Assembly: GCF_000771225.1 (NCBI RefSeq)
Contig: NZ_JDTZ01000003.1
Location: 372,001-436,000, forward strand
Source of the DNA: Bifidobacterium pseudolongum subsp. pseudolongum DSM 20099
GTDB lineage: Bacteria; Actinomycetota; Actinomycetes; Actinomycetales; Bifidobacteriaceae
Length of the DNA stretch: 64,000 nt
Direction: 5' to 3'
The translations under genes and the position numbers were made by a program. Below the pieces are notes generated by a model. It did not search any database. It had not been told where the DNA came from and worked only from the letters and a program-made list of their open reading frames with translations. This document shows positions 15,959-22,274 of the stretch, in pieces; the stretch's first letter is position 1; the number at the start of each line of letters is the position of its first letter.

Positions 15959-16128
15959 CAGTCCGTGGATTCTCCTTGCAGTGCAGATGGTGGTGTCGCG
16001 AAAAAGACGCACATATAACTCGCTCTTGGAGATATTATATACTGGCCAACGGTAGCAGGAATGTCGTATATAACTATATGGCTGCGATGACATCCGTGAT
16101 GTCCGCGGCACATCGATTAGGGGGGTAG
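15959..16128 (+). other. AT-rich intergenic stretch
   Basis: This 170-base gap contains a locally AT-rich patch (about 16010-16080) with two copies of ATATAACT at 16013-16020 and 16068-16075, and TATACT at 16038-16043. It may hold the promoter of the following surface-protein gene. I could not pair any of these with a convincing -35. A purine-rich AGGGGGG just before 16129 is the likely ribosome site. Confidence 0.35.
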
Positions 16129-18508
16129 ATGAATACGAAGGATATCAGGCGAAAACTCACGGCGGCGATTGGTGCGGCCACGGCGTGCGCGACACTCATA
16201 TGTGGGGGAGTCGGTGCAGCGCAGGCGATGGAACGCGACGCACTCGGCGGCTCCGTGCTCAATGCATACAACGCCCTCAACGGCAACGGCATGCGCTTCG
16301 AGAAAGTCAGAGGGCGGATTGCGCGCCCCCGACGGCGTGGTCGATTATATCGGCGACGGTATGATCGCCGAAACGGACAAGGGCCAAGGCGACCGCGGCC
16401 AGTCCTACAGCTACGCCGCCGCGTCCCATGGCGACTGGGTGTACATCGGCGCCATGTATGGCGGTCTTGGCGTGCAGGCGATCCTGAGCCACGGCATGGC
16501 GGTCCAACATGGGCATGTCCGCTGAAGCGGCGAGCAACCTCATGCAGACGATGTACGCGGGCCACATGTATCTGGGCGAACCCGACGGCAAAAGCGCCGG
16601 CGGCATGCTGTTCAAATTCAATGTGAAGACCGGCGAGACGAAGATCCTCATGTCCAAGAGCGCCGGCATCGAAGGCGGCAAAGGCATCATCCCCACATTC
16701 CGCAGCGCATTCGAGATGAACGGCAAACTGTATTTCGAGGGCATGGTCATGGACACGGCGAACCCGGACCTCGACCAGCGCGAGATCCAGACCGCCATCG
16801 CGATGCAGAACGGCTTCCCGTGCATCTACGAGATCGATCCGTCCAACGGCGACAAGCTCACGCTCGTGCACAACAGTGTGGACACGGAAGGGTTCCGCAC
16901 GCTCGTCAAGCAGAACGTGTTCACCTCCACGCGTGCGATCGGCTCATTCAACGACACGCTGATCACCGGAGACCTCAAGATCGACGAGAACGGCAACGGT
17001 GCGGCCTATCTGGTGGCGTCGGACACGCCGTCGGTCCCCGGATCGTACAAAGTGATCGCCGACATGGCGAGTTTCGACAACCTGCCGGCGATTCACCGTT
17101 CCGACGTCAACGGTGGCGGCGGCATCTACCAGATGCTCGAATTCAATGGCAAGCTCTACGTCGTGGTGTGCACCGGCAGCACGGACACGCGCAACGAGCA
17201 GACCGGCACATTGCGTTCCTTCGCCATCTACGTAGGTGAAAACAACGGCGACGCGACGAACAAGGACGATTGGAACTGGCGGCCGCTCGTCGGCGACCCC
17301 ACCAAGGGCGCCAAATACTTCTACGGTCTTGACTCCAGCCGCGTGAGCGCCGGCGCCTGCACGCTGCAGGTCTTCGGCGACCACCTCTACATCGGCGATT
17401 ACAACGATGTGTCGAGCGCACTGCAGGGCTTCGCGATGAACATGGACTTTCGTGACCCAGGCCACGAACCTCGAACAGTCGATCAACCTGTACCGCATGG
17501 ATGCCAATGAGAACGTCGAAATGCTCGTGGGCGACGCCAACAAGACCTTCCCCGATGGCGGCAGTACCGGTTTGGGCAGCGGCTACGGCAACAATATGAA
17601 CCAGTACACATGGCAGACCGCCGTGCACGAAGGCAAGATGTACCTGTCGACGATGAACACGACGACGCTGCTCGAGCCGATTGCCCAGTTCACCAATGGC
17701 GACATCCTGCACATGAGCGCGCAGGAGTGGAAAGACACGGTGAAATATCTGCGCGCGTTCCTCGAAATCCTGCTCAAGCGCGATGATACCGCCGCATTCT
17801 CACGCACCCGTTCGGTACGCCCATCGGCGGATGACCCAGATGCGCTTGTCGAATGGGCGTGCCGGCAGGCGAGCGAACGTGCCGCCGCTGACACCCCGGC
17901 CCAGATCGATGGCGACGGCGGCACCCAGGAGGAGGTCGCCCTGACCGATGCCCAGCGCGAGTCGCTTGTCAAGGGCATCAAGGACGGCGGCATCGTGCCG
18001 GAAAGCCTCGATGACGCCAATACCGCAGGGGAGCTGTTCGCCATCAACGGCGCGTTGAGCTCCCTGGCCCCGCAGCTGGACGAACAGGCATCCGAAGGGT
18101 TCGTGGACTCCTATGGTGATCTGCTTGCCGCGTTGGGCGCGTTGCCGCAGGTGCCCGAAAACCTGAAGAAACTCTACGAGACGCTCCTCAAGCTCGCCTC
18201 CAAGCAGAACATGCAGGCGTTCTTCAAGTCCCTGCCGTATCTGGCCAAGTCGAAGCGCGGCTTCAACCTGTTCGAGATCAGCGAAGACGCCCAGGGTGGC
18301 GTGGCCGTCGCCAGCGACAACACCTTCGTCATGCCGTCGCACAGCAACCGAGCCGGGCTCCACAGGCAACAGCACCTCTGCGGGAGGCAGCCAGCAGTCG
18401 GTCGACCTCGCGTCCACAGGTGCATCGATCATCGCCCTGGCGATGGCCGCGGCAGTCGCCATCGCTTCGGGAGCCACGATGATCGCCGTCAAGCGCAAGC
18501 GCGCCTGA
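16129..18508 (+). pseudogene. Broken gene for a wall-anchored beta-propeller-like surface protein
   Basis: One ancestral gene of about 791 residues is now split over three frames by four one-base insertions. They lie near 16309, at 16500-16503 (GG), at 17448-17450 (TTT) and at 18348-18349 (CC). Removing one base at each restores a single frame. The restored product has a signal peptide (TAAIGAATACATLICGGVGAAQA) and then repeated strands of one kind: DWVYIGAMYGG, GHMYLGEPDG, GKLYFEGMVMD, GKLYVVVCTG, DHLYIGDYND, GKMYLSTMNTT. These suggest a beta-propeller. A helical, acidic C-terminal half follows, and the protein ends with LASTG (18407-18421), a membrane helix and KRKRA. I do not recognise the family. 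The ligand is unknown; a starch or mucin role would be guesswork. Confidence 0.75.
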
Positions 18509-18539
18509 CCTGTGCCCCATAAGGGGCAGCCATACGACA

Positions 18540-18609
18540 CGCCGACACCAGAACGTTGGAATTCCAACGATGCTACGGAACGTAGCATGGAAATCCACTG
18601 GTGTCGGCG
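18540..18609. repeat. Nested palindromic element (three-way-junction fold)
   Basis: Outer arms CGCCGACACCAG (18540-18551) and CTGGTGTCGGCG (18598-18609) are perfect 12-base inverted repeats. Between them lie a perfect 16-base palindrome, CGTTGGAATTCCAACG (18554-18569), and a perfect hairpin, ATGCTACG-GAA-CGTAGCAT (18570-18588). Folded, the element makes a stem carrying two side hairpins. There is no open reading frame within it and no obvious target-site duplication. It sits between the broken surface-protein gene and the broken ABC operon. Confidence 0.8.
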
Positions 18610-18703
18610 TTCGTTGCTTGTGGGCATTGGTGCGGGCCCATACGGTGGCCTCATCGACGCGGCGCCAGCTGGCCGCCTCCCTGGACCACGAGGAGCAGAT
18701 ACC

Positions 18704-19488
18704 ATGGCACAGCATCAGCCACCATCCGGCGACGCGATCATCAGCGCACGGGGATTGACCCAATCGTTCTGTACGGTCGACCACGAACAAACCGTGCTCA
18801 ACGGCCTTGATGTGGACATCCGCCGCGGGGATTTCACCGCGATCATGGGTCCCTCTGGAGCAGGCAAGTCAACGTTGCTCTACGCGCTCGCCGGACTTGA
18901 GCGTCCGGCCGCCGGCACCATCGCTTTCGACGGCGAAGACCTGACGGCCATGCGTGACGACGCGCTTGCCGTGTTCCGCCGGTCCCATTGCGGGTTTGTG
19001 TTCCAACAGCACCAGTTGCTCGAACGCATGAGCCTCATCGCAACGTCATCGTCGCCGGTGCGCTCACGATGCGATCCAAGCCACGGATCGCCGCCAAAGC
19101 GCGCGAACTGTTCTCGCTCGTGCACCTAGACGAACGCACGCAGACGCGCACAAGCGCACAGGTATCCGGCGGTGAGGCCCAACGCGCAAGCATCGTGCGC
19201 GCCCTGATCAACGACCCCGAGCTCGTGTTCGTGGACGAACCGACCGGTGCGCTCAATTCGCACAATTCCCAAGCGGTTCTCGACGTGTTCTGCACGCTGT
19301 ATGCCAGCGGGCAAAGCATCGTCATGGTCACGCACGACCGGCACAGCGCCCTGCGCGCCAACCGCGTGCTGTTCCTGCGCGACGGCACGATCGCCGGCGA
19401 ATGCGCGCTTGGCGCGTGGACTAGCGGCGAGCCGTACGGAGAACGTGAACACAAGCTTGCCGTGTTTCTCGACGAGATGGGGTGGTGA
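18704..19488 (+). pseudogene. Broken ABC transporter ATPase (MacB/LolD type)
   Basis: Ancestral product of about 261 residues, the nucleotide-binding subunit for the FtsX-type permease that follows 4 bases later. It has the Walker A GPSGAGKSTLLYAL, the Q-loop region FVFQQHQLLERMSLI, the signature VSGGEAQRASIVRAL, Walker B LVFVDEPTGALN and the His switch VMVTHDRH. One base is missing between 19040 and 19041. Restoring an A there would read MSLIDNVIVAGAL, as in intact relatives. Without it the protein stops early and loses the signature and Walker B. Start ATG 18704 has AGGAG at 18691-18695. All catalytic motifs survive apart from the frameshift, so the damage looks recent. Confidence 0.85.
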
Positions 19489-19492
19489 CCAG

Positions 19493-21363
19493 ATGCGCAT
19501 GCTCGCCCTGCACCAATGGCGCCGCAATACGGGGACCTTCCTCGGATTCGGCGTGATCATCCTCATCGCCGCCTGCATGCTGGGTTCGGCACTCACCCTG
19601 CTGTTCACCGTGGGGCCGCGCTATACCGCGCTCGCGGACGAACTGCGCACCGCGGACGTGGACATCGTGGTGCCGCGCGCCGCCGCCACCGCTGACGTAC
19701 GCGAATTGATCGACGGCACCGCCGGCGTGGTCGAAGAGATGGAATTCGGCAACGCCGGATCGCAGATCCTCGCGTTCAGCGCCCCAGCCGCACGCTTCAC
19801 CCAGCTTGAACGCGCGTATCCGCAGGCGCGCATGACCGAATACGCGGTGAGCGTAAGCGCCGGCGCCGATCCGCGCGCCGTGCGTTCACACATTGATCGG
19901 GCGCTCGCCGACGCAGGCGTACCCGTGGCCGCCGCTATCGACTGCGACAGTGTGCGCGCAACCCGTACGATGGTCAGCCGGCTCATCATCCTCATCCTCG
20001 TGGTGTTCGCCGTGCTCGTCACCGTGGTCAGTCTGGCATTGTGCACATTCCACATCAGGAACATCGTGAAGACCGACCGTACCGACATGGGCGTGCTCAA
20101 AGCGCTCGGCTACACCAGCCAGATGATCTCGCACGCGATGATGGCACCGTATCTGCTCGTGTGTGGGCGCGACGTTGGCCGGACTCGCCCTATCCACACT
20201 CGCCACCCCAGCGATCGGCTCACTGATCGCGCTGCAGGCCGGCTTCACGTTCCATGCGCAGGCCGACGCGCGCGCTTGGCTCATCACCATCGCGGCGCTC
20301 GCCGGCGTCACGCTGCTGTTCGCGTGGATTGGCGTACGCTCCTTGCGTGCACTGCAACCGATCGAAGCGATCCGCGGCATCAGTGCGCGCAGCCAGCGCC
20401 ATACGGTACGCCCACTCAACCGCATGCCGGGCAATGCGCGCACGGCGATCAGCCTGCAGCAAGCCGCCGCATCCCCCTCGCGCAACCTGCTCGTGGGGTG
20501 CATGCTGTTCCTGATGACCCTGATCGTCAGCTTCGCCGCAGTGCTCACATACAACGCCACGGTCAAACCGGACAACCTTTACAACACGCTGTCCACGGAG
20601 ACGCCACAGGTTGTCGCCACACCAGCCCAAGGAGAAACCACTGAGGCGATGCAACGCATCCGTGCGATTCCGTCGTACAGAACGTGATCGCATACACCAC
20701 GGCGGCACCGCGCTCGGCTACACCGTGGTGGGCTACATCCAGAGCGTCAACGACGGCGGCTCCGTCTGCGAACTGACCAACGCGGGCTATACACGCCTCG
20801 ACCCTGACTTCGCGCACAGCCCACGCACGCTTTACGTGCACTGCGACGGAGACGATACCGCACGCATCATCCGCGTGATCAACGACACCTGCGCCGGCCT
20901 CGTGACACACACCGCCGACATGGAGCGCATGCGTGACACAAGCCAACAGATGTACGGATCGGTCATGTCAACCGTCAGCCTCGCCATACTCATCCTCGCG
21001 GTCGGTCTGACAGGACTCGTGCTGATGATGGTCATCCGGTCCACCATCGTGCGCGAGCGCCACCGCTTCGGTATACTCAAGGCCCTCGGATACACCAGCG
21101 GACAGCTCATGCGCCAGATCGCCGCCATGCTCATGCCCGCCACCGTGATCGGCGCCGCCCTCGGCGCGGCAGTCGCGAGCATTGCCCAACCGGTGACCGA
21201 TGCGCTCTTCGCGACCGTGGGCGTCATGCGCAGCCAATTCGACCACCCTGCCCTGCTGCCCGCAGTCGCCGCGCTCGACCTAGCCGCAGTGCAAGGTGCG
21301 CTCGCACTGGCCCTCGCCACTCCGATCTGCGACATCAGCCCCTACCAGCTCATCACCGAATAG
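19493..21363 (+). pseudogene. Broken ABC permease with two FtsX domains
   Basis: Ancestral product of about 623 residues with two FtsX units, as in DUF214-type exporters of lipids or antimicrobial peptides. The N-terminal helix is LGFGVIILIAACMLGSALTL. The first FtsX unit ends DRTDMGVLKALGYTSQ and the second contains RERHRFGILKALGYTSGQ. The frame is broken three times. An extra T lies near 20161-20163 (LLV to VGATLAG). One G is missing between 20675 and 20676, after which the sense frame reads QNVIAYTT. One G is missing at 20704-20705, leading into GTALGYTVVGY. The longest surviving piece lacks a complete transport unit, so the gene is unlikely to work. Spacing to the ATPase and to the regulator (9 bases) shows a former operon. 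Confidence 0.82.
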
Positions 21364-21372
21364 GAGACCACT

Positions 21373-22274
21373 ATGGACGAACAGACAACCACACCCAAAG
21401 TGCGCACGATGGAATTCTCCACACGCCTCAAGGACCTGCGCGCGCAATCCGCGTCTCGCAGGAACAGCTCGCGCGGCGCATCGGCGTCTCACAGCAGGCC
21501 ATCACCAAATGGGAAAGCGGCGCAGGCCGCCCGGAATTGGAAAGCCTCGTCGCGCTCGCCGACGTTTTCGCGGTGAGCGTCGACGCCCTGCTCGGTGTCG
21601 ATGACGCGCATGCGGGGCCGGCGCGCGGCGAATACCGGTACGAAAGCGCCACGAACTACGACGTCGACGGCGGCAAGCATTTCGACATCGACTGCGGGTC
21701 GGTCTACGCGTGCATGATCCGTGGGTACGACGGCGAATAGCTGCGTGTGCGTGTCGTGTCGAACACCGTGGCCAATCTGGCGCGCCATTTCAAGGTATCG
21801 GTCGACGACAGGCCGAAACGCCTGGACGTGCAGGTGCGCCGTGGCCCCGGCGTCAGCGAGACACTCGCGAAAGACGACGTCACGGTGATCATCTGGGTGC
21901 CGCAGCGGTATGTGACCACGGTCGAATGCGCGGCGAAGGCGCATGAGGCGCATGTGCGGGGCCTGACATGTGACGGACTTGAACTCGATGTGCGCACACC
22001 GCGGCTCAATCTCGATGACGTGCACGCGCATGTGGAGATCAATGGCAACCTTGATATGGAGGTCGACTGTGCATCGATCGACGGGCGTATCGACGTCAAC
22101 CAGCTGTCGTCGACATCGCGTATCACCGTGCCGAAGGGCGTGTCGATCGCCGTGCTGACGCACGGGCCGCGTACGCGCACGATCGTGGGTGCAGGTGTAC
22201 GTCAGGACGAGGATTCGCCCAACATCGTCGAGCTCAACGGCGTGGCGAGCGAACTGATTGTCGAAGGCAGATGA
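21373..22274 (+). pseudogene. Broken helix-turn-helix regulator with DUF4097-like tail
   Basis: Ancestral product of about 300 residues. The N-terminal part is an XRE-type DNA-binding domain: FSTRLKDLRAQS, then after a one-base deletion near 21450, RVSQEQLARRIGVSQQAITK, WESGAGRPELESLVALADVF. The C-terminal 170 residues are rich in short beta strands (LDMEVDCASIDGRIDVNQLS), resembling DUF4097 beta-helix repeats. A TAG at 21738-21740 interrupts the two parts in frame (DGE-stop-LRVRV). ATG 21373 has AGGAG at 21362-21366, overlapping the permease stop. Such regulators are often next to the transporter they control, so this one probably sensed envelope state for the ABC cassette. That role is inferred from position only. 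Confidence 0.78.

What the first reader, a model, noticed from the sequence alone, without database searches (positions are those of the whole stretch)
18540..18609. Y-shaped nested palindrome between two broken genes
A 12-base perfect outer stem encloses a 16-base perfect palindrome (CGTTGGAATTCCAACG) and a perfect 8-bp hairpin with a GAA loop. Three perfect inverted repeats nested in 70 bases are unlikely by chance. It may be a non-autonomous mobile or recombination element, a compound terminator, or the operator of the decayed regulator.
Basis: seen in the sequence. Interest (0 to 1): 0.55.

Follow-up and report, generated by a model that had tools for sequence, protein, structure and literature searches.

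The report
Conserved operator of an XRE regulator
The nested palindrome is not a mobile element but most likely the control region of a gene-switch operon: its central hairpin is a probable protein-binding site that recurs in front of the same family of regulators in several bacterial phyla, although in this strain the regulator itself is broken.

Summary
The palindromes are real: 13-bp outer arms, a 16-bp palindrome, an 8-bp hairpin with GAA loop; fold z -8.1. The element has one full-length copy in its genome. It heads an operon of ABC ATPase, FtsX permease and XRE regulator with a Toastrack-like C-terminus; here all three genes are frameshifted, while two relatives have intact copies. The GAA hairpin looks like operator O1: present in 8 of 8 genus genomes with this regulator and, as ATGCHACGNNNNGTWGC with at most 2 mismatches, at 75 of 78 regulator loci outside Bifidobacterium. 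In 46 of those 75 a half-site TT[GT]CTTG follows at offset 42-44, overlapping a -35; 45 of the 46 have a TANNNT -10 16-18 bp on (shuffles 0.02). A second XRE family in the genus has a sister motif. The 16-bp palindrome shows no covariation; the outer stem fades in distant orthologues. Best reading: autoregulatory two-site operator, probably repressing. Binding is untested. Nine literature searches did not turn it up (lists capped).

The parts
18570..18588 (+).
   Evidence: 95.3% of cells paired in 8 orthologues; ATGCHACGNNNNGTWGC (at most 2 mismatches) at 75 of 78 regulator loci outside Bifidobacterium
18601..18619 (+). Operator O2, degenerate: GTGTCGG-N5-GTTGCTT, 31 bp after O1; left half weak in the window (ATGTC.G in G018, G026, G027)
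   Evidence: half-site TT[GT]CTTG at offset 42-44 from O1 in 46 of 75 loci; orthologues
18618..18623 (+). Putative -35 TTGTGG, overlapping the right half of O2
   Evidence: geometry shared with other loci, coordinates; a plain sigma-70 scan did not call it
18641..18646 (+). Putative -10 TACGGT (TANNNT), 17 bp after the -35
   Evidence: TANNNT 16-18 bp after the -35 in 45 of the 46 loci with the half-site
18554..18569 (.). 16-bp palindrome CGTTGGAATTCCAACG; holds a TTGGAA-like box 7 bp before GATGC that is common to most sites in the genus; the palindrome as such is not conserved
   Evidence: no covariation across 37 distinct sites; imperfect in G034 and G062
18539..18551 (+). Left arm of outer stem; shared by window, G034, G062 and in part G026 and G039
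18598..18610 (+). Right arm of outer stem; overlaps the left half of O2
18704..19488 (+). ABC ATPase gene, first gene of the operon, frameshifted
   Evidence: two frames against the intact G034 copy; Pfam ABC_tran
19493..21363 (+). FtsX-type permease gene, in several frames
21373..22274 (+). XRE regulator gene (HTH_3 + Toastrack-like C-terminus), decayed: frameshift plus an in-frame TAG
   Evidence: intact relatives
16129..18508 (+). Upstream surface-protein gene, broken; not part of the operon

Best explanation
The element is the promoter-operator region of an autoregulated operon. A Cro/C1-type (XRE) regulator with a Toastrack-like C-terminal domain, encoded at the end of the operon, binds double-stranded O1 (ATGCTACG-GAA-CGTAGCAT) and, 31 bp (about three helical turns) on, a weaker O2 that overlaps the -35 box. 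Most likely binding at O2, helped by O1, represses the operon until an envelope or antimicrobial signal is sensed through the beta domain; the ABC/FtsX transporter then answers the signal. Shown by sequence: the conserved O1, the O2 half-site, the -35/-10 geometry, the linkage to the regulator. Inferred: protein binding, the sign of regulation, the signal. In this strain the operon is decayed and the operator is a well-preserved relic, unless another XRE protein binds it. The confidence below is for 'operator-promoter of this XRE operon'; given that, repression rather than activation is about 0.65.
For: 8 of 112 genus genomes have the regulator at E <= 1e-20 and all 8 carry the element before the operon or regulator: 7 with the exact motif, G026 with one changed base. 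O1 is 95.3% paired across 8 orthologues, against 71.3% (outer stem) and 64.6% (palindrome). A scan of named genomes gave 80 loci, 2 of them Bifidobacterium (the G022 and G027 loci again). In the other 78, the motif as known from Bifidobacterium, GCWAC-N5-GTWGC exact, lies within 300 nt upstream of the regulator in 36 and 2.9-3.5 kb upstream in 8 (44 of 78); 5 of 1560 windows of 300 nt elsewhere in those loci have it. The pattern sharpened on these loci, ATGCHACGNNNNGTWGC with at most 2 mismatches, is near in 66 and far in 9 (75 of 78); null: of 1600 windows 0 with at most 1 mismatch, 8 with 2. All loci with the far position (9, plus B. cuniculi L131) have the order ABC-permease-XRE. Half-site TT[GT]CTTG at offset 42-44 in 46 of 75, TANNNT 16-18 bp after the -35 in 45 of those 46; shuffles 0.1 and 0.02 loci. 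A second XRE family of the genus (45 of 112 genomes) has GATGCAACC-N3-GGTTGC upstream: exact at 26 genes in 25 genomes, within 2 mismatches in 14 of the other 20. AlphaFold2 model pLDDT 88.1: HTH (P22 c2 repressor, TMt 0.94) plus a beta domain (best match 4qrk).
Against: No binding or expression data. The sharpened O1 pattern and the half-site and -10 tests were drawn up after seeing the same loci, so their nulls flatter them; the exact Bifidobacterium-derived pattern (44 of 78) is the fairer number. O2 is degenerate in the window and 29 of 75 loci lack the strict half-site. A standard promoter scan found nothing. O1 lies well upstream of the -35, so activation is also possible. L201, L208 and L209 lack a recognised O1; L208 holds only 65 nt upstream and L209 315, but L201 has the full ABC-permease-XRE order and still misses. 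Three weak covariance-model hits, in G004, G035 and G051 (second hit), showed no XRE gene nearby. The Y structure is not empty of support: over 8 orthologues its paired cells exceed 499 of 500 shuffles and all slid versions (partly because it was derived from the window), and 6 of 17 outer pairs have changes on both sides. Pfam sees DUF4097 in only 3 of 31 family members. 52 of the 80 loci show no relative of the transporter genes at E 1e-8, so the regulator is often not next to a transporter.
Confidence: 0.86

Rival explanations
1. Non-autonomous mobile or recombination element (MITE/REP-like).
For: Terminal inverted arms and inner palindromes; the 16-bp palindrome recurs in 41 of 112 genus genomes.
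Against: One full-length copy in the genome; full-length DNA relatives only at the same operon or regulator gene; no match in plasmids or phages; O1, half-site and promoter keep fixed spacing over great distances.
Confidence: 0.02
2. Intrinsic terminator of the upstream surface-protein gene.
For: It follows that gene's stop codon closely and folds very stably.
Against: No terminator-like site in 18300-18900. In G022, G026 and G039 the element follows a different gene (amylase-like by eye, not run through a family search), so it tracks the downstream gene.
Confidence: 0.05
3. RNA leader (riboswitch or attenuator) in which the Y fold is the functional form.
For: Strong fold; compensatory change C-G to G-C at the top of the outer stem between G034/G062 and window, and structure-wide pairing above shuffles.
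Against: The predicted promoter lies downstream of the element; no Rfam match up to E 1 in 16000-21000; the 16-bp palindrome does not covary; O1 sites outside the genus keep half-site sequence and promoter spacing.
Confidence: 0.05
4. Same operator, but the regulator is an activator: O1 centred at about -74 recruits polymerase to a weak promoter (a variant of the best explanation, not exclusive of its first part).
For: No consensus promoter called in the window; O1 is well upstream of the -35.
Against: The second half-site overlaps the -35, and many loci outside the genus show near-consensus TTGTAA/TATACT promoters by eye, which need no activator.
Confidence: 0.25

Closest known systems
Cro/C1-type repressor operators, e.g. 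P22 c2 (operator arrangement from general knowledge)
   Same: Palindromic site for an HTH_3 dimer, more than one site, one overlapping the promoter; the predicted HTH matches P22 c2 (TMt 0.94).
   Different: Sequence ATGCYACG-N3-AGTAGCAT, 30-31 bp repeat spacing, Toastrack-like C-terminal domain, a transporter operon as target in bifidobacteria.
Toastrack (DUF4097) envelope-stress systems, Lia/PSP (PMC11237479; passages and section 27 read)
   Same: Beta domain of the Toastrack type; that paper links Toastrack proteins to ABC transporters and to fused or associated HTH domains.
   Different: Here an XRE HTH is fused directly to the beta domain; 'xre' and 'operator' have 0 occurrences in that paper's main text.
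PadR-type repressors of membrane-protein operons in Listeria (PMC6624303; search listing and start of abstract only)
   Same: Repressors controlling trans-membrane proteins (title); the text holds the term DUF4097 three times.
   Different: PadR, not XRE; how DUF4097 figures there I did not read.

Membership tests
Autoregulatory operator of an XRE regulator | Conserved inverted repeat before the regulator's own gene or operon | tested here: met
   8 of 8 genus genomes; 75 of 78 loci outside the genus, 44 of 78 with the exact Bifidobacterium-derived pattern
Autoregulatory operator of an XRE regulator | A site overlaps or abuts promoter elements | tested here: met
   half-site overlapping the -35 in 46 of 75, with -10 in 45; in the window the promoter is weak
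Autoregulatory operator of an XRE regulator | Regulator has a Cro/C1 HTH | tested here: met
   Pfam HTH_3 2.3e-15 in P0001, 31 of 31 members
Autoregulatory operator of an XRE regulator | Regulator binds the site | not testable with these tools
   needs EMSA or DAP-seq
MITE / REP-type mobile element | Several dispersed copies | tested here: not met
   one full-length copy; same locus in relatives
MITE / REP-type mobile element | Target site duplication or empty site | not tested
   no empty-site relative was sought
Intrinsic terminator | G+C-rich stem followed by T tract | tested here: not met
   0 terminator-like sites in 18300-18900
Known structured RNA | Match to an Rfam model | tested here: not met
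   0 matches at E up to 1 in 16000-21000
Toastrack (DUF4097) domain in the regulator | Match to PF13349 or to its fold | tested here: inconclusive
   PF13349 in 3 of 31 members, not in P0001; best structural match 4qrk, E 6.2e-10 but TM-scores 0.36/0.46

The most novel reading that the evidence does not exclude
O1/O2 is the signature of a widespread, undescribed one-component switch, an XRE HTH fused to a Toastrack-like sensor, with an operator kept nearly letter for letter from bifidobacteria to streptococci, Lachnospiraceae and treponemes (and MAGs binned as Bacteroidota), and shared in sister form with a second, longer XRE family that in some bifidobacteria also marks a separate ABC/FtsX operon, so that one operator code joins several transporter operons.
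Probability: 0.45. Interest if true: 0.65.

Novelty: new member of a known kind. Interest (0 to 1): 0.45.

Why it matters
It gives a concrete, testable operator for a regulator family that I found in 80 loci at 30-79% identity in one capped scan and for which my searches found no described binding site. With the motif one can predict targets in gut commensals and streptococci, and bench-test whether the Toastrack-like domain is a sensor fused to a DNA-binding domain. It also shows how a striking Y-shaped palindrome can be a partly accidental overlap of operator half-sites and flanking repeats.

Tried and rejected
Whole-element mobility: rejected. RNA element: no Rfam match. The 16-bp palindrome as a conserved hairpin: 41 of 112 genomes carry the 16-mer, but in operator context its pairs do not covary. 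I first thought the B. cuniculi regulator (G027), with a changed recognition helix, lacked the motif; two searches found it about 2 kb further on, before the transporter genes, so that argument was dropped. One search used a wrong start point for L182, L208 and L209; one search corrected them. The site of L130 was set by hand; one search leaves out both Bifidobacterium loci. The half-site pattern was broader (TT[GT]CT[TG]G, TTGGTG or TTGGTA: 59 of 77, 56 with -10) than the strict one.

Literature: searches gave 0 papers; some gave none describing this operator in what I read, which was capped listings (15 of 25, 1 of 1, 15 of 159, 15 of 874, 15 of 28, 12 of 55) and passages of PMC11237479, PMC10269507, PMC9503237 and PMC8457756. 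PMC8457756 reports other XRE motifs as logos that I could not compare. RegPrecise itself could not be consulted.

The genus name is inferred: contig lengths of G022:C4 and G027:C1 equal those of B. choerinum LMG 10510 and B. cuniculi LMG 10738 records. The window's species was not determined. Only one genome per species is held, so I could not check whether the frameshifts are shared by other strains or are sequencing errors.

Full report
What is there. The stretch 18530-18620 holds three inverted repeats: outer arms of 13 bp, 100% complementary, a 16-bp palindrome and an 8-bp hairpin with a GAA loop (coordinates). Folding gives -48.1 kcal/mol, z -8.1.

Surroundings. Upstream is a surface-protein gene that ends near 18508; downstream come an ABC ATPase, an FtsX-type permease and a regulator whose intact relative has an HTH_3 domain. 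tblastn with intact proteins of relatives G034 and G062 finds the surface-protein gene in five pieces, the ATPase in two frames, the permease in several and the regulator in two, with one in-frame TAG. The ATPase, permease and regulator are intact in both relatives; the surface-protein gene is intact in G062 and in two frames in G034.

Not mobile. The element has one full-length copy in its genome. Of 112 genus genomes, 30 have some DNA match at E <= 0.01, nearly all of them the 16-bp palindrome or part of it; the full element is matched in the window's genome, G034 (93%), G062 (91%) and G026 (76%). In G034 and G062 it heads the same operon; in G026, which lacks the transporter there, it lies directly before the regulator gene. 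Plasmid and phage collections gave no match.

It follows the regulator. Eight of 112 genomes have the regulator. A covariance model from four copies hit 11 of 112 genomes: the four it was built from, weak hits right before the regulator in G039 and G022, weak hits before a different XRE gene in G053, G051, G043 and again G039, and three without an XRE gene nearby (G004, G035, a second one in G051). G018 and G027 were found later. So 8 of 8 regulator-bearing genomes carry it. Alignment of the eight shows what is kept: GATGC.ACG.A.CGT.GC and a downstream GTTGCT. Pair counts: inner hairpin 95.3%, outer stem 71.3%, palindrome 64.6%; the whole structure pairs better than 499 of 500 shuffles and than all slid versions, in part because it was taken from the window.

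A genus-wide motif. GATGCWACSNNNSGTWGC occurs at 41 places in 29 of 112 genomes; the reversed control gave 19 by my count of the table. Of the 41, 7 precede the Toastrack-type regulator or its operon; 26 precede a second XRE family, 198-279 nt before its recognition helix; 4 precede another operon that reads as ABC/FtsX by eye; 1 (G000c) precedes a start that reads MSFR as in the second family but without a full-length match there; 3 share one coding site, of which one was inspected and reads as pyruvate kinase from my recall. The second family is found in 45 of 112 genomes: 25 have an exact site; of the other 20, 6 have a site with at most 1 mismatch, 8 with 2, 2 with 3, 3 with 4 and 1 (G065, gene itself with stops) with 5. 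In 400 shuffles the best site had 2 mismatches in 3, 3 in 64 and more in the rest, so only the 14 with at most 2 stand out. In 37 distinct sites (the 3 coding sites dropped, G026 added) the 16-bp palindrome's pairs match no better than shuffled (lowest p 0.26).

Across phyla. A scan of named genomes with the regulator alignment kept the best 80 loci; 2 are Bifidobacterium. In the other 78 the exact pattern known from Bifidobacterium, GCWAC-N5-GTWGC, lies within 300 nt upstream in 36 and 2.9-3.5 kb upstream in 8; 5 of 1560 windows elsewhere in the loci have it. The pattern sharpened on these loci gives 66 and 9, 75 of 78; its null is. All far-position loci have ABC and permease genes between site and regulator. 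L201 has that gene order but no site; L208 and L209 hold little upstream DNA. Loci with the site include Streptococcus, Lachnospiraceae, Treponema and Schaalia, a Coriobacteriaceae MAG and MAGs binned as Bacteroidales, where mis-binning is possible. 52 of the 80 loci show no relative of the window's transporter genes at E 1e-8, so the regulator is often without them.

Promoter geometry. In 46 of the 75 a half-site TT[GT]CTTG lies at offset 42-44 from O1 and 45 of these have TANNNT 16-18 bp after the -35 that overlaps it; shuffles give 0.1 and 0.02 loci. These tests were framed after looking at the loci. The window follows suit: TTGCTTG 18614-18620, TTGTGG 18618-18623, 17 bp, TACGGT 18641-18646. 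A plain sigma-70 scan does not call this promoter. If it is the promoter, the element lies upstream of the start site and acts as DNA.

The regulator. AlphaFold2 on 31 sequences gives pLDDT 88.1, pTM 0.69: an HTH followed by a beta domain. Foldseek matches the HTH to P22 c2 and other repressors and the beta domain to putative adhesins, best 4qrk, E 6.2e-10 with modest TM-scores. PF13349 (Toastrack) matches 3 of 31 members. A Toastrack role in stress sensing is proposed in PMC11237479 (passages and section 27).

Mechanism. Shown: conserved operator sequence, spacing and linkage. Inferred: the XRE dimer binds O1 and, about three turns on, O2 over the -35, and so represses; the beta domain senses an envelope or antimicrobial signal and releases it. 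In this strain the regulator is decayed, while O1 is the same as in G034 and G062, so the operator is probably a relic; whether the intact second-family XRE in the genome binds it is open. The outer stem's compensatory change between window and G034/G062 is unexplained.

Verdict. An ordinary kind of thing, an operator, but of a family whose operator nine capped literature searches did not turn up, and kept to an unusual degree across phyla.

Noticed in passing
window 18554-18569; 41 of 112 genus genomes: CGTTGGAATTCCAACG is strongly over-represented in the genus (reversed control 0). Of 43 distinct sites in fetched loci, 24 have at least 4 more base pairs of perfect arm and 17 have a run of 4 or more T after or A before; several lie just after tRNA genes like terminators, by eye. 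Why this exact core recurs is unexplained.
   Followed up: partly
L003 1270-1360 (own genome C4 near 1309); similar in L051, L065: The same 16-mer is the centre of a perfect palindrome with arms of about 36 bp (by eye), with similar copies in G034 and G062.
   Followed up: no
L035, L049, L057, L064: Long intergenic hairpins with GGTGGCTTATATATGGCA-like ends and the same 16-bp tip; a possible small repeat family.
   Followed up: no
L213, L214, L216, L218: Sister motif upstream of a second operon that reads as ABC/FtsX by eye in G022, G026, G039 and G062: possible further members of an XRE regulon.
   Followed up: partly
L210 (own genome C7:4027): Sister operator before a start that reads MSFR, but no full-length second-family XRE was found there; ArsA- and ArsR-like frames nearby (names by eye).
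   Followed up: no
L130, about 240 nt before the regulator start: In B. choerinum an ATPase piece (69.6% identical) lies between operator and regulator: the transporter seems to have been lost there while operator and regulator stayed.
   Followed up: no
second-family leaders, e.g. L116: A further box like GCAACCGCAAGATGGTGG and a -10 like GCATAGTG follow the sister motif at near-fixed spacing, by eye.
   Followed up: no
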